NCBI RefSeq assembly: GCF_036884655.1 | Contig: NC_088354.1 | Location: forward strand, 13,030,501 to 13,094,500 | Length of the DNA: 64,000 nucleotides | DNA from: Musa acuminata AAA Group | Lineage: Eukaryota; Streptophyta; Magnoliopsida; Zingiberales; Musaceae | Direction of reading: 5' to 3' | Shown: one piece after another, positions 24,501 to 63,400 of the stretch | Numbering within the stretch: the stretch's first letter is position 1 | How the letters are laid out: every line of letters starts with the position of its first letter | Translations under genes and position numbers: made by a program | Notes under the pieces: model-generated | Told to the model about the DNA's origin: nothing | What the model saw: only the letters and a program-made list of their open reading frames with translations | Databases searched by the model: none

Positions 24501-27500
24501 CAGAAAGATTATGTTAATCAGGATTACCAGGAGTGTCAGACCAAAAATGAAGATATCATGGTAGATTGATGAAAAACAAACTAAAACAGAACCTCTTCCA
24601 GTTGTATCTTCAACAGTGCTAGTGTTAATATTGTAGAATAAGCTGTCAAAAAAAAAAAAAGTAGTCATAGTAATATAAAAAAGATGTCATAATTAAATAA
24701 TTGAAGAAATCATGTTGGACTAAACAAACAGTTTTGAACTCAGAATTAGCTTAAGTTTATAGTCTTGTGTATGAGAGTGGTTGAGTGCAATGCATGTTTG
24801 AAATTCTTCACTAGCCTTTTCCAGTTCTTCCAATTAGTACACAGCAACACAGTTTTAACAGGAGACCACAATATATAGAGAATTTGATAAGGATAAGGCT
24901 GCAAATGTTACTTCAGAAAGAGTATCAAAAGATACAATGATCTGTAATTTGTTACTGGCTCTAAAAAAAAGAAAAAAAGAAAAAAAGAAAAAAATAGATT
25001 CATGATGAAAGGGCATTCAATATTCCATCATATATGCAATTGAAATTAGTCTATTTCCAATTGACCGAAAATTAGGTTAAATAAATTATATTATAAGTGA
25101 TCAATTTTCATCTAAATGTTCAACAGCACAAAGGTCACTTATCAGGAACATAAACATTTTCTCAACAAGTTAAAACGACCATAGCTCTAAGTGGCTTAGT
25201 GTATCCACAAAGCATCAACTATGTGGATTAGTTTGAGGATTCTCATAGTATGTAGTATGTACAATGCTAATCTGGTCTATAATAATAACAACAAAGGGAA
25301 GAAACTCTGGTTTGGACATAAACAAGAAGCACAGGAACAAATGTCACCATTTGAAACATGAGAAAAAAGAGCAGAAGAAAATGACATTATACCTGTTAAT
25401 TGTTAAATCCCTCCTGTAGGCATCTTCTTCAGCTGTTCCAAACTTCTGAACACAATTAGAATTTAAGACTGTCACAATATATACATCCATGCAGACACAA
25501 TCTGCAGCTGAATAAATAATTCAAAACACAAACTACTGAAGTATAACTTCTGAGTTACTTGAAGAATTTCTCCAAGTTTTAGTAAATACCACAAATATTA
25601 ACCAAGCAATACAAGTAATCTTGAATAATAAAGCAAGAGAAAAGGAATTTTGGGTAATAAATTATAGAAACAATTCCGAAACATTTCCAAAGCTAGAAAG
25701 ACAGACTTTGGTCAAGATAGAGATGAACAGGACCATTTTGTAATCAACATAACTAGAACAAAAGAAAAATAGACAAAGATGATGCATTCGGAGATGAAAA
25801 TATTGCCTAATCCCCATTTGCAACCAGTGACCTACCTTTCACCATTCACCGCCAGTCAACCAACCGTAGCAATTTCAACCTTGAAGGTGCTATTTCTACA
25901 GCTTTCTCTACTTTTGTATTGTTACCTTAATTTGCAATATGCAAACCAGGGTATGTCATACCGAGCCATACCGTCCGGTACGGGCGGTACGTACCGGTCC
26001 GACAGGTTTTCGGTACGCGGACCGATTGTTACCGTTTCGAGGTACTGTAGCACTATAGCAGTTTACTATAGCACTGTAGCAGTGCTACAGTACTCGGTAC
26101 ACCCAGATGTACCGCTCGGTACACCTGGGTGTACCGCTCTGACACAGACTTAGCTGATTTTGCCTAAGTCGTGCGGCACCCTTGCGTGTCCGTCCGCAAA
26201 GGTCAGCCTCCCCGAAGCCTCCCATTGTCCCTTAGGACCACCAAAAGAGAGAACGGGCAAGAGAGAACGCCTCAATCGGGATCCACAAGCAAACATATCC
26301 GAAAAACACTTCATAGACAATGCAAATTACAAACAGACTTTACAAGCTCTGAACAGTGGCACAACAAAGGGTAAAATGGTCCATTACAGACCGAAAATCT
26401 CTCACACGTGTCCACATGACACAACCTTTATTTACAAGCCTAAAGAGGCCACCAACCCAACTAAAATGAGATTATTAAGCCTTCGGCCGCCCCTTTACAT
26501 GCTGTACAAGGCATGAACATGCCAACAGACACGGACAGATATAAGCATTACATCAAACACCTTGTTTAGAAGTTTGTCCGTGACATTCTCCCCCACTTAT
26601 CCCTTCGACGTCCTCGTCGAAGCCTTTGTGAACACTGCAACTCTTCGCCTTTGCTGAGTCTTCAATCTTCTGCTCCAGCTGCAATGCGCCTCCTGGCTCC
26701 AAGCTGCTCTCCGCTGCTGTTTTTGAGTAGTCGAACTTTGACCCGCCATGCTGCTTCAACTCACCAATGACTCTGACTCTGGTGTGGGATTGGCTGAGTT
26801 GTGTTGATCCTCGTTGATTCCTGCGGATCCACCAAATGAAGGAAAAGACCATTCTTACTGCGCCAGTTTCTCAAAATTTCCACATGCTGCTTGAACTGGG
26901 TGGATGCTTGTTGGAGCTTTAACGAGCATCGCCTCGCAAACTTCTGAAGTTTTGGGTCCTTCCTCCACAAAATCTGCTCATTGACTCTTCTTTCAGTTAG
27001 TTGTCACATCCAAGTAGGTTCGCATCACTTCCGCTTTCGATTGGCATTTCGTTGGGAAATGAAGCGGACAATCTACTCTCAGTAGCACTGATCACCGTTG
27101 GTGAGGATTTGACAACTATTGTCTTCCATTATCCTCGAAGGGTCTTTGAACTTGTGCAGATGTCCTCTGCTGGATAAATAAGAGAACTGGGGTACTCGGT
27201 TTTGCCCATTCTCTTAAGAGTTGAGAAGACAAATGTTACTTGACTTCGCCCGCCTCCTCGAGGTTGTACTTCATGCATCGAGCTGGTTACTGGCCTTCGC
27301 CTGCTCTTTGCTCACACTTCTGAAGCACTTGAAGTGTTTGCACTCCTTGCGTTGAGTTAGCTACTGTGATTCACCTTCTCAATGCCATTGAACTTCTGGA
27401 ATGCAGGAAGTTTTCACCCCAACTTGGAGTAATTCTCTGATAGATGAGGTCGCCTCTGGGATTGTACCGTCTTCTCCATCAACCCTGCCGCCTACTCCAC

Positions 27501-30500
27501 TGAGTAGCAAAGGTACAGCACCGCGTACTGCCTGCTTCGTTCCTTGGTCGTGCACTCTTGCATGACCCGAAGTCCTTCACTTACGGCTATCTTGATGAGA
27601 AACTTGTTGACACCGGTCTTACGAAGTTTCTTGGCCTCTGCCCTTCAGCCTTGTCTTGGTACTTGGAGATTGCCTCTGCATGCTCCACCTCCTCGGCCCC
27701 TTTCACGACCAAACGCTCTCCCTCCGTGAGAGCAAAGGATCAATGACTTTCACGGAAGTCCCGCCTCTGCGATACCATGGCGCTGCCATGCCCCTGGCAC
27801 TACTATCCGTCGCCTCGCCTCTGAATCCCTTTTCTTCACAATCAGTAGAAATGTCTCCGTGGCACTCCTCTGAGTCCACCTCCATTCTGACCGATGCTTG
27901 ATTTTGGGTAGCTAAGTCCCTCTGGACTCGTCGTCGCTTCCTCGCCCCTTTCGACCTCCTGCTTCAACACATCTGTGTTCTCCAAGTAGTCTGTTTGGTC
28001 GATGGAAAGACATACTGCAACTCCCATGCATGGCCTCTGCCATCACATTGTAGGGTTTGCACCGATTCTGTTCTCCTTAGCCTCCTTGGTAGCAACGTTC
28101 GCTTACTCGACCTTGTCCTCTGACTTGTCGGGCTCCCTTAAGCGAATATGAGCTCTGGAGCAGTCCAACTCTCCAGCTGTTTCGATCATACCTCTGCATG
28201 ATCAAGTCCCTCCCATGGAACTCACTGGTACTTGCATTCGAACTTTTCCCTTGGTGGAACCCAGCCTCCATATGCTGATGACCAAGGTTTTCATCCGATG
28301 CAAAATTCGATGCACGCCCGGAAGACCCGCCTCTGCGGTACCATGGCCTTCACTCCTTGAATCCATAGCCCAAGGTTTGCCGGTCCGACCTGAATCCATA
28401 GCCCAAGGTTTGCCGTACCGAGCACTGTAGCAGTGCACTGTAGCAGTGCTCGGTACACCTGGGTGTACCGAGCGGTATACCGTACAGTACCGGTACCGAG
28501 CCCGGATCGAAACGCCGGTACGGTACGGTACGACGAACCTTGCCATAGCCCTTCTTGCCGTCGTGTTGTTCACCAAAGCGGAGCTCCCAGTAGCTCCCGA
28601 TCATACCTCCATATGATCTCATCCCTCACGGGACTATGTCGTGTGTGTCGCATTGCCACGAACTATTCCACCACGATCCGCTGCACCATGTCGCCTCCTG
28701 GTGACATCTCCATTGCATTCTGATCCTTGTGGAATAAACTCGAATTGTGAACCCTCCATGTGTGGCCTCTGCCAATACATCGCAGGGTCTCCTCCACCTT
28801 CGATTTTGTTCGCTCATTTGGCAATCGACCTTCATCCACCCACTCTTGGGTCACACCTAGATGAAGTACCGCTCTAGGACAGTCCGTCGCCTAGTAGCTC
28901 CCGAAGTCCACCGACTTCACTGTAATTTGTGCACCATTGTCTGGATCCTGGGCCTCTGCCCCTACCAGCACAATCTCCGCTGCGCACTGCTTCCTTCATA
29001 GCAACTCGAATGGCAACACTGTGGCATATTCTTCAAGAGTACCCGCCTCTGCGTCCTCTTGCCCCGTGCTAAGGCCTTCTGAACCCAACTTCGCCTCCGC
29101 AAATTGAGTCGTCTTAGTTCCTCCATCAAATGCTTCTCCGAGATAAGGTGCATGTGCCCCGAAGCTCCCTTCGTCTTTGGCACCATGCAAGATGAGTCTG
29201 CTCCGTCAGAATGAAGGACCCATGGAACAACATGATCCTACTCTTGCCTCTGCAAGAGTTCATGTCCTTGACCTCTGCCTAAGGAAAGCACTGTGCCTCT
29301 GCTCCATGTCCCAACTTCTATGCTGGCTCCCTTCATGCGGCTTGGGTACTTCGCCAAGTTACACCCAAGTTACTCCGCTCCTCGTTTTTGCATTGAGTCT
29401 ATGGTGGCCCTCGTGCCCACCATTCCACGGGTCAGCCCTCCCTTGAGTCCGATCTCCACATCGACTCCAAGTGTGCCTTCATTTAAGTTGCTTTAGGTCG
29501 CTCCCCCACTTGATCTCGCAATGCATCCACCAATGCATTCTCTCGAGCGAGATCATGCGACAACTCCTCGCCGCTTGCTCAGTCCATCGAGCTTCGTGAA
29601 GTTGTTGTTTGTTGAGGTACTCCTCCTCAACATGTGAGGTCCGTCTCACATGATTCTCCCTCTGGAGAGCCGGGACTTATCCCTCCTGGATAACTATCCC
29701 GTTAGAGCAACATCTCTCTTCGTTTCGGAGACCACCATCCCCTTGGACTACTCCGATCTGCTGAACAAACTGTGCACTGTTCTGCCTCCTGCAAACGCAC
29801 TTGCTAGATTGCGACTCCATGTCAATACAGCCCCCACTGCACCCCTCAAGGCCTAGCAACATGCTGAACACATTGCACACTTCAGCCTCCTACGGACGTA
29901 TCCTTCACATGCCGAAGAGAAAGTTTCAATGCTCCATGGCGCCGAGTTTCGGTCGCCTTGGGATGGCCACGAACATTCCATCGTCCGCATACAAGCCCAT
30001 GCATGAGTATCAAATTCTTCGAATTAGCAATTCCCCTCACCTCTATGAGCTTTGCATAACTCTTTTGGTTGTTGAGCAACTCATTCCACCTTGCATGGTC
30101 TCATTCTTGCCAAGCGCCTCGCTTGCCTAGAGCACCATCAAGTATAGTTGTCAACGTTGAGCCGTAGCTCAAACTCAGCCATCCCAACCTTTGTGCACTC
30201 CAAATTCTTCCAAGCTTGCCTGTTCTCGTGGTGCCTCTTGCGCGAAGGGTTGGCCATTCCTCTGAATGCCGATCTCAGATGCCCGCTCCTCTGAGCGACT
30301 CTTTTCCCTACATCTCCATGCCCGTTTTCCCTCAAACGGTCGCGCGTGTGCTGACTGCCCTCAACGCAGCCCCGCTAGGTCCCCCACGTTTGCATGTCAA
30401 GTGTTTTTATGAGTGCTTGTCCCGCTCTGATACCATATGACACGGAATTAGCTGATTTTGCCTAAGTCGTGCGGCACCCTTGCGTGTCCGTCCGCAAAGG

Positions 30501-33500
30501 TCAGCCTCCCCGAAGCCTCCCATTGTCCCTTAGGACCACCAAAAGAGAGAACGGGCAAGAGAGAACGCCTCAATCGGGATCCACAAGCAAACATATCCGA
30601 AAAACACTTCATAGACAATGCAAATTACAAACAGACTTTACAAGCTCTGAACAGTGGCACAACAAAGGGTAAAATGGTCCATTACAGACCGAAAATCTCT
30701 CACACGTGTCCACATGACACAACCTTTATTTACAAGCCTAAAGAGGCCACCAACCCAACTAAAATGGGACTATTAAGCCTTCGGCCGCCCCTTTACATGC
30801 TGTACAAGGCATGAACATGCCAACAGACACGAACAGATATAAGCATTACATCAAACACCTTGTTTAGAAGTTTGTCCGTGACAGCTCGGTATACCGTACC
30901 GTACCGGTACCGAGCCCAGATCGAAATACCGGTACGGTACGGTATTGCGAACCTTGATGCAAACAATCGTACTAGAGATCTCTTACATGAGTGTTGGCTG
31001 GTTTTCTTTTTGTAATGGACACTTAATCCAGTCTGACCAACCTGAGCTGAACTCAACCCTATACAGTCTGACTTCAAACCCAAAATATGAAACATATACT
31101 ACAGTTGGGTTCAATTTTTGGAACAAAAATGGGTTAGGTTGGACATCAGGCAGGATCATTTTGGTCAGATCATGCCTTAATGTATTGGACCCCAGATCAT
31201 AGCTTGCAAGCTATATATATGGAGGCCTTACATATATCTTATCCTTATGCAATGCTAGTTTTCCCATTTATATAATCTATTTCATATATCTTTTTTGCTT
31301 TGTTTTACAAGCAACAATACCTAGCATAGAACAACCTTAGTTGAGGAAGTAATCCCAAATTGAGTTAGTTTCAAATATATACAAATCAAACTAATGCCAA
31401 TATATATTTGAAATAATGAAATATATCGTAATTCAATATAACATGCCTCAAAAGACCAAACCCACCTTAAAAGGACAACAATCTGATAAAGCTAAACAAA
31501 GATCAAGTAAAATCTCCTTCATGAGTTCATATATTACGACCAATATAGGTTTTCATTGGCTAATATATTTCAGACATCAAGTGGTAAATAAGTTCAGTAT
31601 AGACTGGTAAACCAGCTAATACTGCAGAGGGATCAGGTGATGAAAAATAAAGGTGCCACAAGTGGGGGAACAATATCAGACAGTATTTCATTGGAATCAG
31701 TAAATTGAGAGTCTGAGACTATATTATAAAGACCATAAAATATCAAGAGATGATGTCTTTAATAGATAAAGAGGATTAAAACAGATTCACAAGAACCATC
31801 CAGATCATAAGGCGAATGAAACATGTTATATTCCTGAAGAATATAGATCTTCTTCATGGATGTAAGCACTATTCTAAGCCAAATCATGAAGGTCAGAACC
31901 ATGGTTTGCAGTACCGGTCCGTACCGCCCGGTACGACAGACTTTCGGTACGCGGACCATATGTTACCGTTCCGACACTGTAGCAGTACTGTAGCACTGGA
32001 AGTACCATTGTGGGGATTCGGCTGTTCTCAGCATAGATATTAAAAGAACTGTAGTTAGATATAGTATTAAAAGAACTGGAAGTACCATTGTGGGGATTCG
32101 GCTGTTCTCAGCATAGGTTTCAGATCGCAAGTTAACAAAATCAATCCAAGTATCATAAATTCTCATCCTTGCAGTTTCCAAATGTTTAGATTGGTCAGGG
32201 TTGCTGCATAAACATGTGTCTCATCAGTATATATATCAAAATGAGAAAAGAATGAGCCAATACAAAATCAATCAAATATTCACAAGAAACTATTGTTATT
32301 AGTACCTTAACAGTTTAACCTCCATAAGTCACCTTAACCATATTACCTAAAATAGTCAGAAGGACCTATGTTCACTGTGATTTGATAATAACTATAAATT
32401 AACACACAAATGAATTGATATATTATAATTTACAAGCACTAAATGGGAAACAAGTATATTCTTTAGTCTGGTTCAACTTTGGCACTGATAAATCTCAACT
32501 CCAATGGAATACAATGTTTGCCATTGGATCAACTACATGATAGATAAGAGCACTTCCAAGTTCCAACAATTCAAAAGTTGACTTTCTCAAACCAAATAGT
32601 AAATAAATCATTGAACACGAATAACATCTATTTCCAGAAACCAAAGGAAGGAAAACTTACCACTGGATAACACCTATTCCTTGTTGTTCTTCACCTGTAA
32701 ACTGGAGAAACTCGTTGACCTTCTCACAGAACTCTCGACCCAACATGTTGTCCAATGCAATATCAATATCATAACAATCTTTACCCAATAGCTGTTTAAT
32801 TTGAACAATAAACATTTTTCATAATGAAACCAAGAATAATTTTTTTGAACCAAAGTAACAGCAATATGCTTACATGAGAGTTACTATAAATCTGCCCTTG
32901 AAATTTCGTACATTACTTGTATTCTAACTTTGAGAAGAAAAAAATTTCAGAAGCACATATATAGAAAATCAAGTTCAACAAAAAACATAATGAACATAGA
33001 AAACCACAAAGTATTGTTCAAGTACCACAAATGTTTCGTACAATTTTTGTTAACATATGCATACAAATCCATCACCTCATTTACACAAAATTCCTCTATC
33101 TGAACTACAGATTGAGGGGTTGAAACTGACAAATTAGCCCCATGAAGCAAGAGTGGTCTTTCTTCAAAGTGAGACACTGCCATGTCTCGAGCAGAATCTT
33201 ATTACAACAAATTCTTGAGAAGGCAGTGTAAGAAGTTTGATCCCAATTAATAATATCTAAAAAGCACAAATTGCCACTGGTTGGTGCAGATACACCATAG
33301 AGCTGATGAAACAATTATTAAAAATATATTTTTATAGAAGATTCTTGGACTACTACTCATAACTACAACATGTATTTCATGAAAACTAGTAGCGTGGCCA
33401 GTAAGAATTTCATCCCCATCAAAATGAAGGAAACTGAAAACGTAAAAGCCATAAAACCTTGTTGGCATATTGTCACGGACAAACTTCTAAACAGGATGTT

Positions 33501-36500
33501 TGATGTAATGCTTATGTATGTCCATGTCTTTTGGTATGTTCATGCTTTGCACAGCATGTAGAGGGACGACCGAAGGCTTAATAGTCTCATTTTAGTTAGG
33601 TTGGTGGCCGCTTTAGGCTTGTAAATAAAGGTTGTGTAATGTGGACACTTGTGAGAGATTTTCGGTCTGTAATGGACCATTTTGACCCTTTGTTGTGCAA
33701 CTGTTCGGAGCTTGTAAAGTCTGTTTGTAATTTGCATTGCCTATGAAGTGTTTACGGAAATGTTTGCTTGTGGATCCCGAATGAGACGTTTTCTCTAACC
33801 CGTTCTCTCTTTTGTGGGTCCTAAGGGACCATGGGAGGCTGACCTTTGCGGACGGACACGCAAGGGTGCCACACGACTTAGGCAAAACCAACTAAGTACT
33901 GTATGCTTCGTTCCTTGGTCGTGCACTCTTGCATGACCCGAAGTCCTTCACTTTCGGCTATCTTGATGAGAAGCTCGTTGACACCGGTCTTACGAAGTTC
34001 CTTGGCCTCTGCCCTTCAACCTTGTCTCGGTACTTGGAGTTTGCCTCTGCATGCTCTGCCTCCTCGACCCCTTTTACGACCAAGCGCTCTCCCTCTATGA
34101 GAGCAAGGGATCAATGACTTTCGCGGAAGTCCCGCCTCTGCGGTACCATGACACTGCCATGCCCATGGCTCTACTATCCGTCGTAATGCGATACACACGA
34201 CATAGTCCTGTGAGGGACTAGATCATATGGAGGTATGATCGGGAGCTACTGGAAGCTCCACTTCGGTGAACAACATGACGGCAAGAAGGACTATGGATTT
34301 AAGGAGTGAAGGCCATGGTACTGTAGAGGCGGGTCTTCCGTGCGTGCATCGAATTTTGTATCGGATGAAAGCCTTGGTCATCAGCATATGGGGTCTGTGT
34401 TCCACCAAGGGAAAAGTTCGAATACAAGTACCAGTGAGTCCCATAGGAGGGACTTGATCATACAGAGGTATGATTGAAGCAATTGGAGAGTTGGACTGCT
34501 CTAGAGCTCATATTCGCTTAAGGGAGCCCAACAAGTCAGAGGACAAGGTCGAGTAAGCGAACGTTGCTACCAAGGAAGCTAAGGAGAACAGAATCGGTGC
34601 AAATCCTACAACGTGATGGCAGAGGCCATGCATGAGAGTTGCAGTCTGTCTTTCCATCGACCAAAGGGAGCTGCTTGGAGAATACAGAGGCGTTGAAGCA
34701 GGGGGTCGAAAGGGGCGAGGAAGCGACGATGAGTCCAGAGGGACTTAGCTACCCAAAATCAAGCATCAGTTAGAATGGAGGTGAACTCGGAGGAGTGCCA
34801 CAGAGACATATCTACTGATTGTGACAAAAAGGGATACGGATGCGAGGCGACGGATAGTAGGGCCATGGGCATGGCAACGCCATGGTACCGCAAAGGCGGG
34901 AGTTCCGCAAAAGTCATTGATCCCTTGCTCTCATGGAGGGAGAGCGCTTGGTCGTAAAAGGGGCCGAGGAGGCGGAGCATGCAGAGGCAAACTCCAAGTA
35001 CCGAGACAAGGCTGAAGGGCAGAGGCCAAGGAACTTCGTAAGACCGGTGTCAACGAGCTTCTCATCAAGATAGCCGAAAGTGAAGGACTTCGAGTCATGC
35101 AAGAGTGCACGACCAAGGAACGAAGCATACAGTACGTGGTGCTGTACCTTTGCTACTCAGGAGAGTAGGCGGCAGGGTTGATGAAAAAGACGATACAATC
35201 TCAGAGGCGACCAAATCTATTAGAGAATTACTCTAAGTTGGGGTGAAAACTTCCTGCATTCCAGAAGTTCGATGGCATTGAGAAGGTGAATCACAGTAAC
35301 TAACTCAACGCAAGGAGTGCAAACACTTTAAGTGCTTCAGAAGTGTGAGCAAAGAGCAGGTGAAGGCCAGTAACCAGCTCGATGCATGGAGTACAACCTC
35401 GAGGAGGTGAGTAGGCGGCAGGGTTGATGGAAAAGACGGTACAATCCCAGAGGCGACCAAATCTATTAGAGAATTACTCCAAGTTGGGGTGAAAACTTCC
35501 TGCATTCCAGAAGTTCGATGGCATTGAGAAGGTGAATCACAGTAACTAACTCAACGCAAGGAGTGCAAACACTTTAAGTGCTTCAGAAGTGTGAGCAAAG
35601 AGAAGGCGAAGGCCAGTAACTAGCTCGATGCATGGAGTACAACCTCGAGGAGGCGAGCGAAGTCAAGTAACCTTTGCCTTCTCAACCCTTAAGAGAATGG
35701 GTGAAACCGAGTACCCCAATTCTCTTATCTATCTAGTAGAGGAGCTCTGCATAGGTTCAAAGACCCTTCGAAGATAATGGAAGATAATAGTTGTCAAATC
35801 CTCACCAACGGTGATCAGTGCTACTGAGAGTAAATTGTCTGCTTCATTTCCCAACGAAATGCCAATCGAAAGCGGAAGTGATGCGAACCTACTTAGAAGT
35901 GACAACTAAGTGAAAAAAGAGTCAATGGGCAAATTTTGTGGAGGAAGGACCCAAAACTTCAGAAGTTTGCGAGACGATGCTCGTTAAAACTCCAACAAGC
36001 ATCCACCCAATTCAAGTAGCATCAGACATTTGAGAGACTGGCACAGTAAGGATGGTCTTTTCCTTTATCTAGGGGATCCGCAAGAACCAACAGGGATCAA
36101 CACAACTCAGCCAACCCTACACTAAAGTCAGAGTCATTGGCGAGTTGAAGCAGCATGGTGGATTAAAGGTTCGACTACTCAAAAATAGTAGCGGAGAGCA
36201 GCTGGGAGCCAGGAGACGCATTGCAGCTGGAGCAGAAGATCGAAGACTCAGCAAAGACAAGGTGTTGCAGTGTCGGCAAAAGCTTCGATGAGGACATCGA
36301 AGGAATAAGTGGGGGAAAATGTCACGGACAAACTTCTAAATAGGATGTTTGATGTAATGCTTATGTATGTCCGTGTCTTTTGGTATGTTCATGCTTTGCA
36401 CAGCATGTAGAGGGACGGCCAAAGGCTTAATAGTCCTATTTTAGTTAGGTTGGTGGCCGCTTTAGGCTTGTAAATAAAGGTTGTGTCATGTGGACACTTG

Positions 36501-39256
36501 TGAGAGATTTTCGGTCTATAATGGACCATTTTGACCCTTTGTTGTGTAACTGTTCAGAGCTTGTAAAGTTTGTTTGTAATTTGCATTGTCTATGAAAGTG
36601 TTTACGGAAATGTTTGCTTGTGGATCCCAAATGAGGCGTTTTCTCTAACATGTTCTCTCTTTTGTGGGTCCTAAGGGACCATGGGAGGCTTCGGGGAGGC
36701 TGACCTTTGCGGACGGACACGCAAGGGTGCCGCACGACTTAGGCAAAACCAGTTAAGTCCGTGATAATATACCAAAAGAAGCTTATATTAGAACCCAGAG
36801 TAGGAATCTAGGAACCAGTATAGATAGTTCTACTAAAAAATAACATTTTTTTCCCAATTTATTCACTGTTGAGCAACTCAAGCAAAATTTTTATTTTAGT
36901 TTCATTCCCCTCACTCCCCCACAAAAAGAAAACAAAAAGAACACACATATGGTTTTTTTTTCACTATTGATGTCATTTTATACATTTTCAATAATTTCAA
37001 TCATTTTGAGGGCCGGCCGTGCTACAATGGTAAGATTGCTCCTTTGCGACCTGAGAGACCAGGGTTCAAGTTACGGAAACAACCTCTTTAAATATTTAAA
37101 GGTAAGACTATGGATATTGACCCTCCCAGGTCATCATGCATTGGGTACGCTCTTTTTAGTAATTTCAGTCATTTTGCATTAAGTTTCTAACTTTTGAGTT
37201 TTGACCAACATGGATAGGGATTTGTATTTTGTAGCTTTTAAAAAATAAACATTTGCTGAAGATAGATACAAGCAGCTTCAGTAATACTGGAATCAGATTG
37301 GCTTCTGTTAATCATAAAGTGCTTAACCCAATCAGGAGAAAGATTAGCAGGAGTACTAAACTGTTATCAGAAACAGCAGCCAGCATCCAAGTCATTTGGT
37401 TGAAATGGTACAGTTCAATTATCTTTTAAAGCCTTCTGTACATTAGCTTTACCTCTCAAAACTACAAAAGTTCCATTCAATACTTCCATTGTCATCGTAT
37501 GGTAAAACCGTAAAGAAACTTTGCCCATTGATGAGTCTAACTATGGAGAATGACTATAAGTTGCAAAAGATATGAAACGACTCACCATATGATTATAGGG
37601 ACTACTGACCTCATATCAACTCCAAACAAGCAATATTCAGTTATTGACTATCACAATGACCTAAGTGTTGGCAGGAAATGCTTACTGTCAAAAGCACAAG
37701 CAACCACACAGAAATCTGAGAAATTCTTCGAGTAATGGTATGCCATATGAACACCAAAAAGGAAAGACATAATTGCAAGAACTAACAACAGAAATGTTTG
37801 ATGCTTTGCCAGTTTTTCTATTGAATGCTCCACATTTGTATAAGACCTTAAGCATAAAATTTTATTTTATTTCAAACCTCTAACATTACATGATCCTGGG
37901 TCTTTTAAGCTATCCCAAGAAACACAATATAATCAGATATTGCATACAGCAAATTGTTCTGCCAGGAACAAATTAGTGACTACCTTAAGATAAGATGAGC
38001 TTTAGAATGAAATCATAGTATCCCAGTTTAGTTTCCCATTTTATGGGATTCAGGCCTGCAGGACCAATATAACTGGATAACTTGGGATTGGGAACAGGTT
38101 AGATCGGACAAATGATGTCAAACCAAGTCATGAGTCTGAATCATGTATCTGCCCCACTTTTCTGTGTTTAATTAAAAATATTTTGTAGTATTCATTCTTC
38201 ATTTGAGTTTCCATCATACATTTCGGTTGCGTTCACACATCAAGTCTAAACCGGCATACCCGTGAAAGGGGATGTTAAATCATACGTTGGGTCTTTCCTT
38301 GCAGTGAATTTGTGATCACTCAATCAAATATTTAGGACCCAATAATATTTTAAATAAGAATCTTAAACACCAAGGGCATCTCATCATACTGAAATTTTAA
38401 TATTTTAAACAATGTCCAGATCACTTCTATCCTTTCCATGTAAAACCCTTTTATTAGTATATCACCAATCTCTAAGAAATTGTGGTCACTATAATGGTTA
38501 AGCTTCTCAGTTCTATAAACCCTACTGTGATTTGAGAAACTGTATCCAATAGTAAAGACAAAGATCTCAAGTTTCACGAAGCACGAGAGTTACCTCGATT
38601 ATCGGTCACAAAACTTAGATACAAGATACTGAGCATTCATCATCACATACTACGTTATGTTTAATAAACATTTCTCAGAAGATAAGGCATAGCCCATCGT
38701 CAGTATATTCATTCAGTTCTTGTCAGCATTAAAGAGTTCGTCCGAGGACGACAATGAGAAATTGACCTTCGTTCAAATAGCATGTAGTCAATCGCAATTC
38801 AGAGTACAGGTACCACACAATCAAAGTCTTAGCAACTGTGATTCAGTTGTTACAGATTCTGATTCGATTTAATTCTCGAGTAACCTCGACTAATCTGGAT
38901 GCAGACAAGATAATCGAAACAAGAAGAGGAACGGAACACGAGCAAACCTTATCGCGGACCCAACCACCGGCGACTCGGAGCTGCGTCTCCAACTTGAAGT
39001 GACGGATAACATCGAGCAATCGCTGGAAGATCTTCTCCTCCTTTTTCGTCAGATCAATCCTCTCCTTCACCGTGAACGGCGCCTCCATTACTCTCCTGTC
39101 TGTAGCGCTGCCGCCACGGCTACAGAGTCCACGGAGACGAAACCCTAGTCGCCTACTCGGGGGAGGGCGAAGGATTTGCGAGAGGGGAAGACGTAGAGGC
39201 GGGAATCGAAGGGGGTGGAACGCTATAAAGCGAGCAGGGTTGAGATGGAGAGCCAT
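18571..39256 (-). CDS. tRNA CCA-adding nucleotidyltransferase (class II), 15 exons
   Basis: Adds or repairs the 3' CCA end of tRNAs, using CTP and ATP. Exons on the minus strand: 39256-38948, 32791-32661, 32203-32086, 25445-25393, 24642-24593, 24495-24397, 23520-23411, 23095-22968, 21665-21599, 21024-20941, 20742-20680, 20542-20398, 19253-19092, 18857-18760, 18684-18571. All phases agree, giving 1731 nt and 576 aa. Class II motifs are intact: motif A RVAGGWVRDKLLG with DYDID-type metal ligands (D111, D113), motif B RRDLTIN (197-203), motif C DDPLRVLRAIRF (242-253) and motif D ISRERIGHE (to 290). The tail ends EECQDWMKQFQSKRAKLDCC. Residues 1-56 (MALHLNPARF..., Arg/Pro/Leu-rich) look like an organellar targeting peptide; MEAPFTVKERIDLTKKEE at 39088 could be a second, cytosolic start. 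Introns 1 (6.2 kb) and 3 (6.6 kb) hold LTR elements. The exon-11 donor GTCAGA is non-canonical around GT. The gene appears functional. Confidence 0.93.
19632..19797. mobile_element. Solo LTR of a small (TRIM-like) retrotransposon, 166 bp
   Basis: The sequence runs from TGTAATATCCC to GACCCGGGTCGTGACA, that is TG...CA ends, and is flanked by a perfect 5-bp direct repeat TGCAA (19627-19631 and 19798-19802). It contains 'gtcccacatcgg', a word I know from small plant LTRs, and a perfect 11-bp hairpin CATTTTGGTCC (19726-19736) / GGACCAAAATG (19746-19756). No internal region or second LTR is present. It sits in intron 12 of the CCA-enzyme gene. Confidence 0.8.
22527..22632. repeat. Short tandem repeat in CCA-enzyme intron 8
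   Basis: The word 'tgtacagttg(c/t)agcaaggaag' starts at 22527, 22568 and 22597. The first and third copies are followed by the same 'aaaagaaggaaaattta'. Confidence 0.85.
26140..26585 (-). repeat. Element A, 3' LTR
   Basis: Paired with the repeat at 30438-30883. On the plus strand it reads TGACACAGACTTAGC to TTTGTCCGTGACA. Confidence 0.9.
28404..28542. mobile_element. hAT-type GGTAC MITE, copy 2, inside LTR element A
   Basis: 139 bp, from CAAGGTTTGCCGTACCG to CGACGAACCTTG, flanked by a perfect 8-bp duplication CCATAGCC (28396-28403 and 28543-28550). The matching position in LTR element B (about 34275-34310, inverted) lacks the insert and reads as an uninterrupted 'ggactatggatttaagg'. A short partial copy of the same left end, 'caaggtttgccggtccgacc', precedes it at 28371-28390. 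Confidence 0.9.
30438..30883 (-). repeat. Element A, 5' LTR
   Basis: On the plus strand it reads TGACACGGAATTAGC to TTTGTCCGTGACA. The primer-binding site adjoins at 30422-30435. Confidence 0.9.
31900..31997. mobile_element. hAT-type GGTAC MITE, truncated copy 3
   Basis: It starts CATGGTTTGCAGTACCGG and continues with the family interior ('cggtacgcggacc', 'actgtagcagtactgtagca'), then runs without a right terminus into a duplicated piece of CCA-enzyme exon 3 at 31996. No matching 8-bp duplication was found downstream, so the right end is lost. Confidence 0.7.
31996..32116 (-). repeat. Duplicated end of CCA-enzyme exon 3 with its splice donor
   Basis: The 41-bp sequence 'ctggaagtaccattgtgggg...' occurs at 32076-32116, spanning the true exon-3 end at 32086 and its donor, and again at 31996-32036. 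The offset is 80 bp. The linker contains a second small duplication 'tattaaaagaactg' (32038-32051 and 32065-32078). Confidence 0.85.
33896..35135. repeat. Large inverted repeat inside element B
   Basis: The arms 33896-34183 and 34848-35135 are 288 bp each, inverted, with a spacer of about 664 bp. The outer ends read 'gtactgtatgcttcg' and its complement; the inner ends read 'ctactatccgtcg' and its complement. Confidence 0.85.
35163..35654 (+). repeat. 246-bp tandem duplication inside element B
   Basis: The sequence starting 'gagtaggcggcagggttgat' at 35163 recurs at 35409 with only a few changes. The interior of element A carries the corresponding sequence once (around 27240-27490, inverted). 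Confidence 0.85.
37009..37159 (+). mobile_element. tRNA-derived SINE (Au-like), with target duplication
   Basis: The tRNA-like head has a box A-like 'tgctacaatgg' (37020-37030) and a box B 'ggttcaagtt' (37063-37072). The tail 'ggtaagactatggatattga', 'ccctcccaggtcatcatgca' and 'ttgggtacgctcttttt' matches the 3' part of plant Au SINEs as I remember it. It is flanked by a 17-bp direct repeat with one mismatch: TAATTTCAATCATTTTG (36992-37008) and TAATTTCAGTCATTTTG (37160-37176). It lies in CCA-enzyme intron 1. Confidence 0.85.
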
Positions 39257-45400: not shown

Positions 45401-48400
45401 AGACCAAGGTAGGCAATACCAAATGATACCGCCCGGTACGGGCGGTACGTACCGGTCCGACGGCATACCGGTACGCGGACCGTCCGCTACAGGGCGGAAC
45501 GAAAAATAATAATAAAATTATATATATATATATATTAATTTATATATATATATATATAAACGAGGCTACGTCGTTGCCTGGGAGAAGAGAGAATGGTATA
45601 TATAATATATATAATATATATATATATAACGAGCGGTATACCGAACGGTATACCGCTCGATATACAGTTTCGTACCGTATCGAGCGAACGTCGAAAATCC
45701 GGTACGGTACGAAATTGCAGACCTTGCTTGAGACAATGTATGATGCCTGTAAGTGTTAGTCATAATGTGTGATATTTAAACAAAACCACTTATGTACAGG
45801 TTTCATAAATTTTTTATCTTAATCTTTGTCCTTATTCTTTGTTAACTTTGTGTAGCAATGACAACAAGTTATAATGACCCAATTTTATTTTACTGAAAGT
45901 ATGAATATTTATTAGCACATTTGCTATGTTTTTTTAACTTGTATATTGCCTCCTTGTCTATACGGAGGTTGCTTGAAAACTTTAATTTCAGTTTCTGGTG
46001 ACTCCATTTTCTTCTTTGACTTTCCAGGAGCTAGTTATCCTGAACAACGGGAAAGCATCTTTTTGAAAAAAGAACTTGAGAATAAAATGAAGCAACCCGA
46101 GTACATGGTAATCACCTTATCATGCAATTTTCTTATAGCTACACTATGAGCCATCTCTCACTTCTACTAAATATTTCTTTTTTCCATCATATTTGATAAT
46201 GATGACATCCAAAATTTACAATTTTTTTTTGCACACTGTGTGCCTAAATACCGTGCATGAAACATGTACTTTGCATTGAGAACATCATGGTACATTTTTC
46301 ATACAATATTATTACCTGGGTCTATGATTTACATGTAGATTCAAATTTGTTATTATATTGACCTGATATTTGCTCTTATGCATACATAACACTTAATTTG
46401 CATTTCATGTTTTTAACACAGAAAATTCTGGAAGCTAGAGATTCTTTACCTATATCTAAGCTGAAGAGTAATATTCTACAATTGCTAGTTGAGAATGATG
46501 TGATTGTTGTTTGTGGGGAAACAGGTTGTGGAAAAACAACACAGGTACTTCATAAATTTTTGTAAATATATATGCTATTCCTTGTCATTGTTCCTATATG
46601 TATTACATATATTTCATCTTGATAGTTGGTATGATTTACCTGCCTAACAAAATAATTTTACTCCGGTACACATATGGGATGCTTCTGTTCCAATACATGT
46701 TACAAAATAATTTTCTTACCTTAGTACTTGTGGAAATGTTTGGATTTTGAAGGTCTATTTTGGTAGAAAATTCTGAAAGTGCCTGTTGACAAATTCCCCA
46801 CTTTTTGATGTTGTTGCATGGTTGATATGTCTGTCCATAGAATTAAAGTTTCATGGTTAAAGTGGAGAGGGATATCAATAATTTTGTGTGATTGTCATGT
46901 GCCTCTTAATTTAAAGAAAAATATTGCATCACTGTTGCAAGTCCATATATGCTTTATGATTATGCATGTGGAGCAGTTAGGTTAGTGTTGTGGAGATGAG
47001 TATATTGAGTTGTGGACATTTGCAGGTACAAAAAAAGATAGAATGTGAAATATTTACATTTGTGAACTATTAAGTGTAGGTTGTAGCTTTGACTGGTGGT
47101 AGAATGAGAAATAGATCACTTGAGATGGAGTGGACATCCAAAGATGAGTAGATGTAACAGTTAATTGAGGTGAATCAATTATGATTTTTTGGCATGGGGA
47201 GAGGTTGAGGGAGACCTAGGAAAACCTCATTAAATACCACACCTCTTAGTTTAATTAGTGATATTGTCCTTAACAAAGCTAAATGACGAGAAAGTTCCAT
47301 GTAACCAACTGCAAATAGTTGGATCATTGTAGCTTATTGATGTCGTTGATGTTGGTTTGTTGTGGATAATTGGTTCATGCTAGGTTAAAGTCTTGCCAGC
47401 ACTTATAGTTTTTGATGAATAGTCAGATTGAAAGGTTGTGTGCTTCGTCGTGTCAGCATGACTTGTGTGTTGATGATGGAAAGGAAACAAGAAGAAAATA
47501 AAAAGAGCTTATTTATTTATTTGTTTTGAAGGTAAATGTGCCTTTTAATGGTAAAAGATGAATTTCTCAACCCATTTTCCCTCTCCAACATTGGATTGCG
47601 ATGCAATGCCTTGAATTTATAGGGGTTTTTGTAATCAGTGTTTGATTCTTTCAAAGCCCTAATTGAGGTAATGAGTAGGTGATTTATATTAGATTGGACA
47701 AATTGAATTGGTAGTGTCTTGCAAACTACCCCTTTTGATAAAAAAGAAATGTGAAACTGTGATTTCTGGTATGTTTATCGAACTTTCCTTCCCTTTTTTC
47801 TGTTAGTGTATTCTTCTGAAAATTGTAACTTTTATTCAAAAAAGTGATTTTTTGGTTTAAACTGTTTCACTTTGCAAAAACTCATGGTTCATGCTACAAC
47901 CCCACATTGTTTCTTGTGATTATATTTCATACAAGTGTGATAATCTGCCAAAGAAAGTGTGTTAATCATGCTACAACTCATGGTTCATGCTACAACCATA
48001 AAAGTGTGATAATCTGCCAAAGAAAGTTCTTTATGTAAATTGCTTTGTATGAGTAGATCAGTCATTTATCCTTGGGATCTGACGTACTGGACACTTCCAA
48101 CATGAATTGATTCATTTTGGGTCAAAAGTGATTCTTCAATTTTTTTTTATAGGTGCATATGTTACTTATTTCCTTATTTAATAACTTTAGTTTATGATTT
48201 GAGCTATTGTGGATAAGAATGTATCTATTGATCTTTATAGTTATGAATTATATTTTATGTGTTATGCTTTGCTGTTATTTCTCAAACACTAGCATGGTTT
48301 ATGACAGCGGATTTGAAAATAGGTATTATGTAGGCTATGTATATAGCTGGTTCTATGTAGTGGCACGACCCATGCTCTTCTGACTTGGTATGGTATATAC

Positions 48401-57400: not shown

Positions 57401-60400
57401 TGGGGTGACGAGTCACTACTTTCTGAAGACTATGTTAATCCCCATTATATCCCAGATCAATATGCGTCATACAGTGACCGAACACGGCAAAATCTGGTAA
57501 ACACCTATTTGATGGTTGGATAACCAGGTAATTGTTTACATAACTAACATTGTGGCTGTCATAAATACTGTGTGCAGAAGCGTTTAAATGAGGATGTGAT
57601 TGACTTTGACCTTCTTGAAGATTTGATATGCTTTATTGATGAAAATTATCCACCGGGTGCTATTCTTGTCTTTCTTCCAGTAGGTCCTTGTGAATGTCCG
57701 TCAATATACTACATTAATTAACTATATTGTCTATGAATGTTTGTTTCTTGTGCCTTGCTTACCGGTCATCAAACGGTTACTACAGGGAGTTGCAGAAATT
57801 GACTTGCTAGTTGACAAGTTAACTGCTTCCTATCAATTTGGAGGAATATTATTGGATTGGATTCTTCCTCTGCATTCATCTCTTTCAGCTTTTGAACAAA
57901 AAAAGGTGTTTTTGACCCCACCTCAGAATATCCGCAAGGTATTTGTTACTGAACTTATGTATCAAGCTGCAATTTTGTTATTCTCCTGTAACTTCAAATC
58001 CTGTGTGTTATTTTTAGTTTTTGCTGGCAGTCATCACTACTCTTGTTGATAGTTTATGACAGGTTATTTAACCCCTTGATTAAATGGAAATACCTATATA
58101 GAAAAATGAAGTCAATGGTTGCTACTTTTAACAAATTGATGCTTCATATTGTTCAGATTTTTCTTTGTTTCAATCTTATTTTCCCAAATTCTTTGTATTT
58201 TTTAATTTTTTGATCAAAACACTGAAGTATGCATCCTCATGTAATGTTTGCAGATCTCTGTGATGCATGCAAAATAATTGAAATGCATTACCATGTTTAT
58301 GCTTGTTCTTTTGTTTCTATTAGGCATGGTTGGATGTCTATGGTTCATTAGAATAAAAGTACTATGGTGAATCTCTTCTGTGCAATATGTTTTTTCTTCT
58401 TTCTTTTCATCTGTAAGTAATGTGGATTGCTTGCGCTGGTTGTGTGATGTCCACATATTAAATGTAACAGATATATGACTAGTACTAGCATTACTCGATG
58501 CTCATACAGTCAATAAATGATTGCCATGAAGGTGACGAAGTGCTTTATTAACATTATTTTGTCATAATGCTATTGCTAAGTTGGAATATTATTTTTTAAA
58601 AATATAAATCTAGGGCCAAAGTTACGATTGTGGTCTTTGAACTTTGTTACTTAAACCTTCATGGTTGCTAACATCTTCCTTAATCTTGGTTGCTTTTGGA
58701 TGGGAAACTAAAAAATAATTCTTGTCGCTACCAAAGATCTCAATTTCGGTCTGTACTGGTACACCGAGCCCTGCTCGGTACGATACGTATTGGGGTGTAC
58801 CAATGGTACACTGGGGCATACTGGCGGTACACCCAAAAAGAGTTGAAAAACCTGCAAAAATACCTGGAGGCAACGGTCCAAAAATATTGGGGCGTACTAA
58901 CTGGTATACCTCGGTAACGATCGAAATCCACTTGGTAACAGTCAGATTTCGACCATTATCGCTCGATACGAGGTCAAAACATTGGTCTTACCCGGTAGAT
59001 GGCGGTTTGCGTACCAGTATCCTTTCGGACCGGTACATATCTCCCGTATCGGGTGGTACACATCAAAGTTAATCCGACCGTTACCGCCTGATACGAGGTC
59101 AAAACACTGGTCCTACCCGGTAGATAGCGGTCCGTGTACCGGTATCCTCTCGGACCGGTACATATCGCCCGTATCGGGTGGTACACATCAAAATTGAGAA
59201 CCTTGGTCTCTACAATATGTTGGAAAGCAAGGATGATGTCTACTTCACAAACTATCAAATGGGTTATTACTCAATATGAGAACATTGTATTGTATTGGAG
59301 AGTTTCATGCCTATAGTAGGATGGAAGAAATCAACTGAGAAGTTCTTCCCAGATTTATAGTTTGAAGGATAGTTATGCATTTAACAGTGTACCTAAAAAA
59401 CCATTTGTTGTACATTTATAATTTTAGGTCTGAAGGTTCTTATCATGAGGAATTGGGTGGTATCTTTTCATGTACATGAAGATAGACTAAATATGTACTT
59501 TTGGTTTTCAGTTACATATTTCATATTGTTCATCGACTAAGTGGGTTGATAATCTCTTCTTGTATGCTAATTTTATTGATGATTGTTCATTTCCCCAGGT
59601 CATTGTTGCTACAGATATTGCGGAGACCAGTATAACAATTGATGACGTGATTTATGTGGTTGATGCTGGAAAGCACAAAGAGAAACGTTACAATGCTCAA
59701 AAGGTTTAAGGTCAAGCTTGTTTATTCATGATAGTAAAAGAAAATATTTTACGATGATCATTAAAAGTGGAATTCTAATTTATGCTTACCTCATCTTGTT
59801 TTGTTTGTATGGTCACAATTAGTTACTTTGAGTTGAACCCAAGTTTAAACAAAGTTCATTGTCCTTATTTCAAATGGGTGAAGGCTGAAGTGGTTGTGAT
59901 GTAGTTTCCAAAACATAATATGGATTATGGACAATAACAATCATGGAAAGAACATGGATCTTCATGCCTCATGAAAATATACGATCTCAATTCTCATGTA
60001 TGTGGATCTTAATCATCTTTAGCAGAAAACCCGTTTTTAGTATAGAACTCTTGTCACATGAAAGTGACGCCAGGTTCCTGGCCCATCATATTGGTCCTCA
60101 GATGTGGTGCAAAATAGACGAGTTCTCAAATTGTTTTGGACTGAAACTTGGTGTACAGGAACACCTTCAAGAATATGACTAGTATTGGTAGATACAATGA
60201 TTTGATGGAGAATTAATATAATTTCTTTACAGGAGGCCAAGTGGGTAGGGCAAAAATTTTGGATCTTTCCAGTTGGGTTTGGCCAAAATCTGATCAAATA
60301 CAAACCATTTAGAGTCTTTCAATGCTTTAGGATGCACGATAATCCTATCAATATAGGTCTAGCAAATTCTTTCTATCACTTAGAAAATTGACCCCTACTC

Positions 60401-63400
60401 AATAATTCAATGCAAACTAAATGTTGTTTCTTTCCTGGGCATCCTAACCTAGTAATACCATAAAGAATAAACTTATAAGAATAAAGTTGTAATAATTGTT
60501 ATCTTACCAGGGACATTCTGTGTCAAAATCTTTTTTTTAAGGCCTGCTAACAAGTTCAATTTCTAGACATGCTGTGTTTGTCACTATAGATCTAATAAAG
60601 GTATCTTTTTCTGGTCAGTTTTGGATGCTATGTTGGTTTGGTACCTGATTATAACTCAAGTTCAAGTTCTTGCAAGCAGTTTCACCTATGCCATGAGGCC
60701 ATTTTTATGAAGCAAGGATTACTTTACTATTATGATACGGATACCCTTTGAATCACAATTTGTTTGTTTACCTAAAGTTCTTGTAAGCAGTTTTGGCTAT
60801 GCCAAGGCCATATATGTGAAGCAAGGATGCTTTGAATCATGGTTCGCCTTACCGGTCTGTACCTGTGTATTGACCGGCCATCGGTATGGTACATACTAAG
60901 CCTTACCGATGTATCGACACACGGTATGGTGGAGCATACCGATGTACTGATATATACTGCCCGTACCAGTACATACTATCCATATCGAGCAGTATGTTGC
61001 GGTATGATGAACCTTGCCTTGAATTACTTTTTGTATCCATATTAGATATTTACTGAATAGGATACTTGTAGGTGTGGTATTCAATTATATATAAATGGTA
61101 AAAAATTGGATGGTTTTACTTGAATACTTCATGGATACTTCTCGAGATTTGTTTTCTACTTGAATGTCTATTTTGTTAACCTAGTGATGAATAATGATTA
61201 CGTAGTATGTTCATATCTTGTTTGTATTTAGCATTAGTGGGTAGTGAGATTAATTTAATAATCTTAATTACATAAATTCTTGCTATATTTGGCATGCTAT
61301 GTTGCTGAAAATATTTTTCATAATGAATAGGATAGATATCATGATTAGTTACTTATCATTTATCATGATTCACTATATGATATATAATTAGCTATTCTGA
61401 CACTGATTATTGTCAAATACTCATATTCATAAAATATTCTTTGTTGGTATATCCGTTTCTACTTTTTCAAAATGTACTTTGACACATATGTATTGTGTTT
61501 TATTCTTATCTTGTATTTGTATCCAAAGTTCATGGGACCATATCTGTTGGCAGATCTGAGTTATAGGCATCTGAAACTAATTTATTATGCTCTTCAAATT
61601 CCCAGTTTAATAATGTTTTAGCAAGCCTTTCTAGTAGGTTTAATAAGCGGGGTCAGATTTATCATACTTCTTATTACTTGTTGCAGAAAATGTCAAGCAT
61701 GGTAGAGGATTGGATATCTAAGGCTAATGCAAAGCAACGTCGAGGGAGAGCTGGACGTGTGAAACCTGGTATCTGTTTCTGCTTGTACACATGCCACAGA
61801 TATGAAGTGCTCATGCGGCCATTTCAGGTTTGTCCTGTATCATTATGTTGAAGATTTTTCCCCCCCTTAAGTTCTTGTTGACTTTGGTTTCACACTTTCA
61901 CGGTTATCATTTTGTAAAGTTTAAGAACAAATGTTTGACTATATATTCGGCTTGTGTGGAAGAGTTGTATGCCTGTTCATGATATTCTGAAGTTGCCAAT
62001 TCCAGGTCATTTATAGCTTTATTTGGCCAATAAAAGATCATGCCTGTACTTTTAGGCTGTTGTTCAACAAAACGAGGCGCCCTCGAATATTAAAATTTTA
62101 AAAATATATTATGATTGATAAATATGATCAGAATGTGGTGAACTTAGAAAGAAAGTTCTAACTCCTAATAGAGTAATAGTGTACCACCTCAATATAGTGC
62201 AGCAAGTTACTCCACGAAAGTGTTACTTATAAAATGAGAAGATGGAGAAGTAATTGGCGACCATGGAGGAAGGTGGAAACCAACGACGGATGAAGCTGCA
62301 ACGGTGGACGAAATGGATGAGGTTGTCGACGATGGCGGACGAAGCTACAGCAGCGGACGAAGCAAATGAGGTTGTCGACAGCGGCGGACAGAGCTGTAGT
62401 GGCAGACGGCACATAAGAAGGCAATGGACGAGCAGTAGGTTTTCACTTCTGGTTTCTTTCACTAGGTCAGTGTTAGGATAAGTGCACTTACAGCCTACAT
62501 TAGTTGGTTCGATTGAACCAACTTACTCACCAAGTCAACCCAATTTGGCTCGGGCTTCGGTGCACACCCAGGCAGTGCTTCATTGAAATGCCTTGACCGA
62601 GTGCCTAGGCAAGGCACCTTTTGAAAACACTGTTGTTGTTTACCTTCTGAGTGACCAGTCAAGGCTCAGTTAACCAAAATTTATTTTAAGCAAAGCAATA
62701 AAGTTTAAGTCTTACTTTATAAAGTAGATGAATTTCAAACAGAATAAAGAAAACAGAGAAGGAAACAAAAGAAAAGAAGTAATAGAATGTTTGTGTGTGT
62801 GAGAAAGAGAGAGGAATAACATGTACTAGAGGCTATCTGGTACTGGTGTATACCGAAGAGAGAAGAATGAAGAAGAGGAGACGGTGAAGGAAGAGGAAGG
62901 AGGAGAAAGAAGTAAGGAAGAACAGGAGGCATTGGAAGAAGAGGAAGGAAAAAGAGGTGAAGAGGGTTTAGCAATGGAGGAAGAGGAGGCGGTTAAGTAT
63001 CGCATTGGATGGCTGGTGGTGAGCAGCAAGTACCGAGCGACAGTGGCTGCAGGCCTCATCACCAAGCATGAGAAATCACACATCACTAGTCCGTAACCCG
63101 AAGAGAAAAAAATAATGATCGGACCGAACCGAATTACTCAGTTTGAGTTGGTCTGTGTACCTGTAGACAGTTGGACCTATATATACCAGTCGAATCGCGC
63201 TAGACTTGTTGAGATTTCAGTCCTTGTTTGACCCTAGGGATGCATAGTACTCCCAATTTTAAGATGGGCTAGGATATCCCTACAAGATTAAGGAACCTAT
63301 ATAGTGATGGGACTGAGAACATGTTTAGATGTCTCCATGATAGGGTATCAGGAACTCGTTAAGAATCACTTTGTCAAGTCTTTGAGACGGAAGAGAGGAA

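What the first reader, a model, noticed from the sequence alone, without database searches (positions are those of the whole stretch)
25947..61016. A family of hAT-type MITEs built from GGTAC/ACCG palindromes, six copies in 35 kb
Copies at 25947-26139 plus 30888-30956, 28404-28542, 31900-31997 (truncated), 45405-45726, 58732-59205 and 60838-61016 share CAAGGT-like termini and an interior made almost wholly of GGTAC, CCGGTACGG and CGGTATACCG words. Five have both ends and 8-bp target duplications, three perfect (ATGCAAAC, CCATAGCC, CTTGAGAC) and two with one mismatch. The terminal CAAGG and 8-bp duplications fit hAT elements (known). Lengths of 139-474 bp and no coding capacity make them MITEs. 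The density of self-complementary tetramers is unusual: almost any part can pair with any other part, so transcripts would fold strongly. All copies lie in introns or in an intronic LTR element. Whether the family is already described I cannot tell.
Basis: partly seen in the sequence, partly recalled or inferred. Interest (0 to 1): 0.75.

Follow-up and report, generated by a model that had tools for sequence, protein, structure and literature searches.

The report
Banana hAT-type miniature transposons, GGTAC-rich
Six short DNA inserts in a banana chromosome, apparently all in introns, share one end design and five carry 8-base target duplications, so they are likely passengers moved by a hAT-type jumping-gene enzyme, predicted to grip the repeated TACCG words near their ends; the class is well known, and the regular end layout is what stands out.

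Summary
Six copies lie at the stated places. Five have both ends: three with perfect 8-bp duplications, two with one mismatch. For one, a sibling LTR element has the empty site. CGGTA/TACCG/GGTAC/GTACC words are 44-fold denser inside than outside, and every copy folds better than shuffles. The host is Musa: one window protein is 100% identical to a banana TCP8-like protein.

Additions: c5 lies in reverse, its left block duplicated in tandem. The end signal reaches about 27 bp: TAC(C/T) begins at position 23 in 10 of 11 ends and at 13 in 8 of 11. In c4, 20 of 20 words lie within 100 bp of an end. The compared blocks of c5 and c6 differ from c1/c4 mostly by C-to-T/G-to-A changes, 20 of 21 at CG or CHG.

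Best reading: non-autonomous hAT elements of mixed length, built more like maize Ds than a uniform MITE family; the palindromic words are probably subterminal transposase sites. Not shown: genome-wide copies, an autonomous partner, binding. Musa hAT elements were described in 2014 (paper not held), so the family may already be catalogued.

The parts
25939..25946 (.). c1 left target duplication ATGCAAAC
   Evidence: 8/8 match to 30957-30964
25947..26139 (+). c1, left part of a 262-bp hAT-type element, with the left palindrome block at 25969-26024
   Evidence: 82% identical over 78 bp to the left end of c4
26140..30883 (-). LTR retrotransposon inserted in c1; LTRs 26140-26585 and 30438-30883 (446 bp each, 5 differences); flanking GCTC duplicated
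   Evidence: strand from a tRNA-type primer site next to the upper LTR, read by eye (recalled motif)
30888..30956 (+). c1, right part
   Evidence: 90% identical over 70 bp to the right end of c2
30957..30964 (.). c1 right target duplication ATGCAAAC
28363..28403 (+). upstream CCATAGCC plus a 33-bp partial duplication: a 21-bp left tip of an element and a second GAATCCATAGCC flank
   Evidence: absent from the sibling LTR element; the join without it aligns gap-free
28404..28542 (+). c2, 139-bp element inside the LTR retrotransposon; target duplication CCATAGCC at 28396-28403 and 28543-28550
   Evidence: 8/8 duplication; empty site in the sibling near 34288, join 487 bp at 92.8% with no gap
31900..31997 (+). 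c3, left-end fragment, right end lost
   Evidence: 79% over 75 bp to c1; TACCG at positions 13 and 23 from the tip
45405..45726 (+). c4, 322-bp element; word clusters at both ends, AT-rich centre; duplication CTTGAGAC
58732..59205 (-). c5, 474-bp element in reverse orientation with a tandemly duplicated left block (58950-59070, 59075-59195); duplication with one mismatch
   Evidence: left block of c4 matches 59183-59128 at 86% and 59058-58991 at 78%
60838..61016 (-). c6, 179-bp diverged element; duplication with one mismatch; orientation uncertain

Best explanation
These are likely non-autonomous hAT-type DNA transposons of banana, cut and pasted in trans by a hAT transposase that is predicted to recognise the CAAGGT tip together with TACCG boxes ten bases apart and the palindromic CGGTAC blocks behind them. 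Shown: matching ends in both orientations, 8-bp duplications, an empty site for c2, a shared spacing of the boxes, and word clusters at the ends of c4 with none in its middle. Inferred: the transposase, its binding to these words, and that the density of palindromes reflects packing of binding sites into a very short element. Also inferred: older copies decay through methylation-linked C-to-T change, which weakens the palindromes, so that they would be kept by transposition and not by use in the introns.
For: Duplications of exactly 8 bp in 5 of 5 two-ended copies, 3 perfect and 2 with one mismatch. The pattern nTnnnnAn, reported for Hermes (PMC2803484, two passages), holds in 4 of 5 copies (c1, c4, c5 on both sides, c6 on the left side only; c2 not), against 8.9% of 8-mers in the window. 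Empty site: the join without the insert aligns to the sibling LTR element over 487 bp, 92.8%, no gap. TACY at position 13 in 8 of 11 ends and 23 in 10 of 11; the highest count at any single position in 2000 rotated controls was 5, in 2000 shuffled controls 3. Left and right ends of the five elements agree at 71 of 125 positions (6-30), and at 19 to 33 of 125 when slid by 1 to 3. c4: 20 of 20 words within 100 bp of an end, an area that is 62% of its length. Subterminal repeats are called a defining feature of hAT elements (PMC4890040, passages); Ac transposase binds repeated AAACGG cooperatively (PMC3260210, passages); Hermes BED domains bind a quasi-palindromic repeat pair cooperatively, at a fixed distance from the tip (PMC10368747, passages). 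Decay: over left-block stretches chosen by hand (50, 50 and 31 positions at which c1 and c4 agree), c5's two blocks and c6 differ 25 times: 21 C>T or G>A, 4 transversions, no A/T to G/C transition; 20 of the 21 at CG or CHG.
Against: No transposase, autonomous copy or binding result was seen. The ends share ancestry, so the fixed spacing may be inheritance. c3 and c6 left tips read CATGG, which departs from the hAT tip pattern YARNG (recalled). c2 lacks the left palindrome block yet has a perfect duplication, and its duplication does not fit nTnnnnAn. In c5, 7 of 21 words lie further than 100 bp from an end; six of them fall in the tandem-block region and one at position 181. The diverged copies have not lost their folds: c5 still folds at z -6.0 and c6 at -3.6, and of the pairs folded from c4's left block, c5's blocks keep 17 of 20 each (17 and 15 Watson-Crick) and c6 8 of 9 (5 Watson-Crick), with one double change each in c5's first block and c6. 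The ancestral state in the decay count is assumed from c1/c4, 36 of whose 50 compared positions are G or C, and c5's two blocks are not independent. Protein searches with translations of c1 and c5 found no relative, and two DNA patterns found none in viral contigs, which says little about plants.
Confidence: 0.87

Rival explanations
1. The palindrome density is a fold-back feature in itself: the elements arise and persist as multi-hairpin sequences, by template switching at inverted repeats, and would feed small-RNA production from the introns.
For: All six fold better than shuffles, z -3.0 to -11.7, and c1, c2 and c4 fold into several hairpins in a row. The left-block fold is largely kept in diverged copies: 17 of 20 pairs in each c5 block, 8 of 9 in c6, with two double changes in all. 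A template-switch-like scar lies at 28371-28403.
Against: Pairs weaken with divergence: Watson-Crick pairs 20 in c4 (the reference), 16 in c1, 17 and 15 in c5's blocks, 5 of 9 in c6; block energy -30.8 in c4, -26.9 in c1, -21.5 and -17.8 in c5. The words lie near the ends in c4 rather than along its length. No Rfam family matches in the window at gathering score.
Confidence: 0.22
2. Separate element families that only share a CAAGGT tip by chance or by common hAT ancestry, with c5 and c6 unrelated to c1-c4.
For: c6 aligns weakly to the others (best orientation 23-33, above the shuffle maximum in 3 of 5 pairs); forward scores of c5 against c1-c4 and c6 are near shuffle level.
Against: c5 in reverse matches c1 and c4 at 77-86% over 56-68 bp, in both of its blocks; the 11 ends share much of their first 27 positions.
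Confidence: 0.12
3. Elements of another superfamily (Mutator-like, PIF/Harbinger or fold-back).
For: Palindromic build and short length also occur in other MITEs (recalled).
Against: Duplication length is 8 in 5 of 5; lengths 4-7 and 9-12 do not fit. Tips are CA(A/G)GG-type in most ends.
Confidence: 0.04
4. Chance clustering of GGTAC words.
For: Some smaller word clusters also occur outside the copies.
Against: 44-fold enrichment and z-scores of 3.4 to 9.3; paired ends with duplications.
Confidence: 0.01

Closest known systems
hAT transposons of Musa (Menzel et al. 2014, Chromosome Res. 22:559; seen only as a citation in PMC7385995; text not held; the name MuhAT is recalled)
   Same: Same genus, same superfamily; PMC7385995 (passages) lists Musa among species with hAT MITEs at high copy number.
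   Different: Sequences could not be compared; whether these copies belong to a published family is open. PMC12550479 (passages) also ran MITE annotation on Musa acuminata; its sequences were not seen.
Maize Ds elements (Ds1, Ds2, Ds-l4) of the Ac/Ds family (PMC3260210, passages)
   Same: Non-autonomous, short TIR, subterminal repeats, variable length and filler middles; 8-bp duplications (recalled for Ds).
   Different: Repeat word is TACCG/CGGTAC here against AAACGG in Ac; most copies here are shorter. That they are more palindromic is an impression, not a comparison made here.
hATpin derivatives of sugar beet (Menzel et al. 2012; seen as a citation and as term hits in the listing)
   Same: Described in that title as MITE-like hAT derivatives; hairpin-prone by name.
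   Different: Text not read; here several hairpins in a row by the folds.
Hermes left-end subterminal repeats (PMC10368747, passages)
   Same: Quasi-palindromic repeat pair at fixed distance from the tip, bound cooperatively by BED domains.
   Different: Animal element, different word (AAGT), asymmetric ends; binding here is untested.

Membership tests
hAT superfamily | 8-bp target site duplication | tested here: met
   5 of 5 two-ended copies, 3 perfect, 2 with one mismatch; no other length from 4 to 12 fits
hAT superfamily | Short terminal inverted repeats with tip pattern YARNG (recalled) | tested here: met
   L/R identity 6-8 of 10 and 16-20 of 27; 9 of 11 tips fit YARNG, the left tips of c3 and c6 (CATGG) do not
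hAT superfamily | Target preference nTnnnnAn | tested here: met
   4 of 5 copies; c2 fails, c6 on one side only
hAT superfamily | Subterminal repeats bound by the transposase | tested here: inconclusive
   Repeats at shared spacing present; binding not testable here
hAT superfamily | Transposase of the hAT type encoded by the element or a partner | not testable with these tools
   The copies are too short to encode one; the host genome could not be searched
MITE (non-autonomous, under about 1 kb, no coding capacity) | Short and non-coding | tested here: met
   Two-ended copies of 139-474 bp; no protein relative for translations of the 2 copies tried, c1 and c5
MITE | High copy number of near-uniform length | tested here: inconclusive
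   6 in 35 kb, but two-ended lengths 139-474 bp and different middles; genome count not available
Published hAT families of Musa | Sequence match to the published families | not testable with these tools
   Paper not held

The most novel reading that the evidence does not exclude
The family is a minimal hAT substrate: elements as short as 139 bp that consist almost only of transposase-binding palindromes laid out in a fixed helical register (TACCG at positions 13 and 23 from both tips, then a dyad block), so that transposition alone selects and renews the palindromes while methylation wears them down in resident copies. That would make the repeat register a readable code for the binding of a plant hAT transposase.
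Probability: 0.3. Interest if true: 0.5.

Novelty: new member of a known kind. Interest (0 to 1): 0.3.

Why it matters
Short hAT elements are common in plants. What is useful here is a clear, testable end architecture (two boxes ten bases apart behind the tip, then a palindrome) shared by differently built copies, and a nested series: c1 before the LTR element, c2 within it. It would give a compact substrate for asking what plant hAT transposases read.

Tried and rejected
Translated copies as protein queries (c1 and c5), to catch the family in plant gene models: one candidate each, none significant. DNA patterns from the right end and left block in viral contigs: 0 hits each.

Paper searches: for Musa hAT names 20 of 130 papers were listed and for the words themselves 20 of 100; no listed title is on this family. 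Searches on Musa with hAT and MITE listed 20 of 611, 7 of 7, 2 of 2 and 11 of 12 papers; two were looked into by passages (PMC7385995, PMC12550479), the rest seen as listings only. The unlisted papers were not seen.

A structured-RNA reading: no Rfam family at gathering score and no tRNA. Covariation as evidence for a kept fold: on the left block it is thin, two double changes in all, and most pairs survive with some weakening; this check was run late and went partly against my wording that palindromes dissolve, so I now say weaken and raised the fold-back rival from 0.20 to 0.22. Dating c2 by the LTR age was dropped: c2 may have been carried in by the LTR element, so the LTR age gives a lower bound for c1 and none for c2.
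Full report
Setting. The window is from banana: the open frame 13634-15217 is 100% identical over its 528 residues to a TCP8-like protein recorded for Musa acuminata, and the next hit, from Ensete, is 82%; the species within Musa is not settled by this. c1, c2 and c3 lie between the 25.4- and 32.7-kb pieces, c4 between the 39.5-kb frame and the 46.5-kb piece, and c5 and c6 on either side of the 59.6-kb piece, so all appear intronic.

The copies. Five copies have both ends, with duplications of exactly 8 bp: 8/8 in c1, c2 and c4, 7/8 in c5 and c6. A mechanical scan found the four unsplit ones, c2 twice, and 20 shuffles gave 0 rows in 17 and 1 row in 3; c1 was missed, being stretched by the LTR element and having tips alike at 6 of 10. 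The duplications fit nTnnnnAn in c1, c4, c5 and one side of c6, not in c2; the pattern covers 8.9% of 8-mers in the window and is the Hermes target consensus in print (PMC2803484, two passages).

Nested history. An LTR element (26140-30883, LTRs of 446 bp with 5 differences, K = 0.011) split c1. That is about 0.44 million years at 1.3e-8 per site and year, 0.63 at 9e-9 and 1.26 at 4.5e-9 (rates from memory), so c1 is older than that. c2 sits in the same LTR element. A sibling LTR element lies inverted at about 33.5-36.8 kb and has the empty site: the join without 28371-28550 aligns over 487 bp at 92.8% with no gap. c2 is thus probably younger than the split of the two LTR copies, but may have arrived inside the LTR element. 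Next to c2 is a 33-bp scar, a 21-bp left tip followed by a second copy of the 12-bp flank; the simplest reading is repair with a template switch, which is inference.

Relationships. c3 and c4 share a left block with c1 (77-83% over 60-80 bp), and c1, c2 and c4 share a right block (70-91% over 77-95 bp in pairs). c5 matches c1 and c4 clearly only in reverse, and twice, because its left block is duplicated in tandem. c6 is weakly tied: best-orientation scores of 23-33 against shuffle maxima of 23-31, above the maximum in 3 of 5 pairs (shuffles made in one orientation only). Its ends and spacing fit the others, and in reverse a 32-bp stretch of its left block reads as a C-to-T/G-to-A version of c4. 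The set varies in length and middle, as maize Ds does (PMC3260210, passages).

Palindromic words. CGGTA, TACCG, GGTAC and GTACC occur 114 times in 1507 bp of element (the 33-bp scar included) and 108 times in 62,493 bp elsewhere. Word z-scores run from 3.4 to 9.3 and folding z-scores from -3.0 to -11.7. In c4 20 of 20 words lie within 100 bp of an end (62% of its length) and the centre has none; in c5 14 of 21 do (42% of its length). c2, c3 and c6 are under 200 bp and c1 is 262 bp (34 of 36 words), so they cannot test this.

End architecture. With all 11 ends lined up from the tip, TAC(C/T) begins at position 13 in 8 and at position 23 in 10, at 18 in 3, and at no other position before 46. The exception at 23 is c2's left end, which lacks the left block. 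Random rotation of each interior gave at most 5 at any position in 2000 trials, shuffling at most 3. Left and right ends agree at 71 of 125 positions in register and 19-33 when slid. The ends are related by descent, so this shows a shared end signal of about 27 bp; that spacing is under constraint is an inference, helped by the more variable bases between the boxes. The strict word TACCG is rarer: at 13 in 7 of 11 ends and at 23 in 6 of 11.

Mechanism. hAT transposases read tips and subterminal repeats together (PMC4890040, passages); Hermes BED domains bind a quasi-palindromic repeat pair cooperatively and need its distance from the tip (PMC10368747, passages). Boxes ten bases apart behind the tip, then a dyad block, fit such reading. 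I therefore take the words as transposase sites. No binding, transposase or mobility was tested.

Decay. Over hand-chosen left-block stretches, at positions where c1 and c4 agree (50, 50 and 31), c5's two blocks and c6 differ 25 times: 21 C>T or G>A, 4 transversions, no A/T to G/C transition. Of the 21, 13 are in CG, 7 in CHG and 1 in CHH context. This fits deamination of methylated sites in silenced copies, with the caveats that c1/c4 is taken as ancestral, that 36 of the 50 positions are G or C, and that c5's blocks share history. The folds weaken but are not gone: of 20 pairs folded from c4's left block, c1 keeps 18, c5's blocks 17 each, and c6 8 of the 9 it covers; Watson-Crick pairs are 16, 17, 15 and 5; two double changes occur in all, one in c5's first block and one in c6. 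That leaves room for the fold-back rival.

Verdict. The class is ordinary; the end architecture and decay pattern are refinements. Musa hAT elements have been described (Menzel 2014, citation seen, text not held), so the family may already be in a catalogue; no search here shows that it is not.

Noticed in passing
26140-30883 and about 33464-36770: Two copies of one LTR retrotransposon in opposite orientation, apparently in introns of the same gene, about 93% alike in their three longest shared stretches. Of frames of 120 aa or more, four lie wholly inside the first copy, of 120, 132 (through c2), 121 and 120 aa. The second copy has a 246-bp tandem duplication at 35159-35657.
   Followed up: partly
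28371-28403: A 33-bp partial duplication of an element tip and its flank next to c2, absent from the sibling LTR element; looks like a repair scar.
   Followed up: partly
195-347 and 36720-36770: 51-bp tandem units near the left edge of the window resemble a stretch at the end of the second LTR element, which is 63% identical to the first unit.
   Followed up: no
31992-32116: A 45-bp stretch at the broken right edge of c3 is repeated 80 bp further on, which may mark how c3 lost its right end.
   Followed up: no
62287-62384 and 62857-62949: 49-bp and 48-bp tandem repeats near the right end of the window.
   Followed up: no
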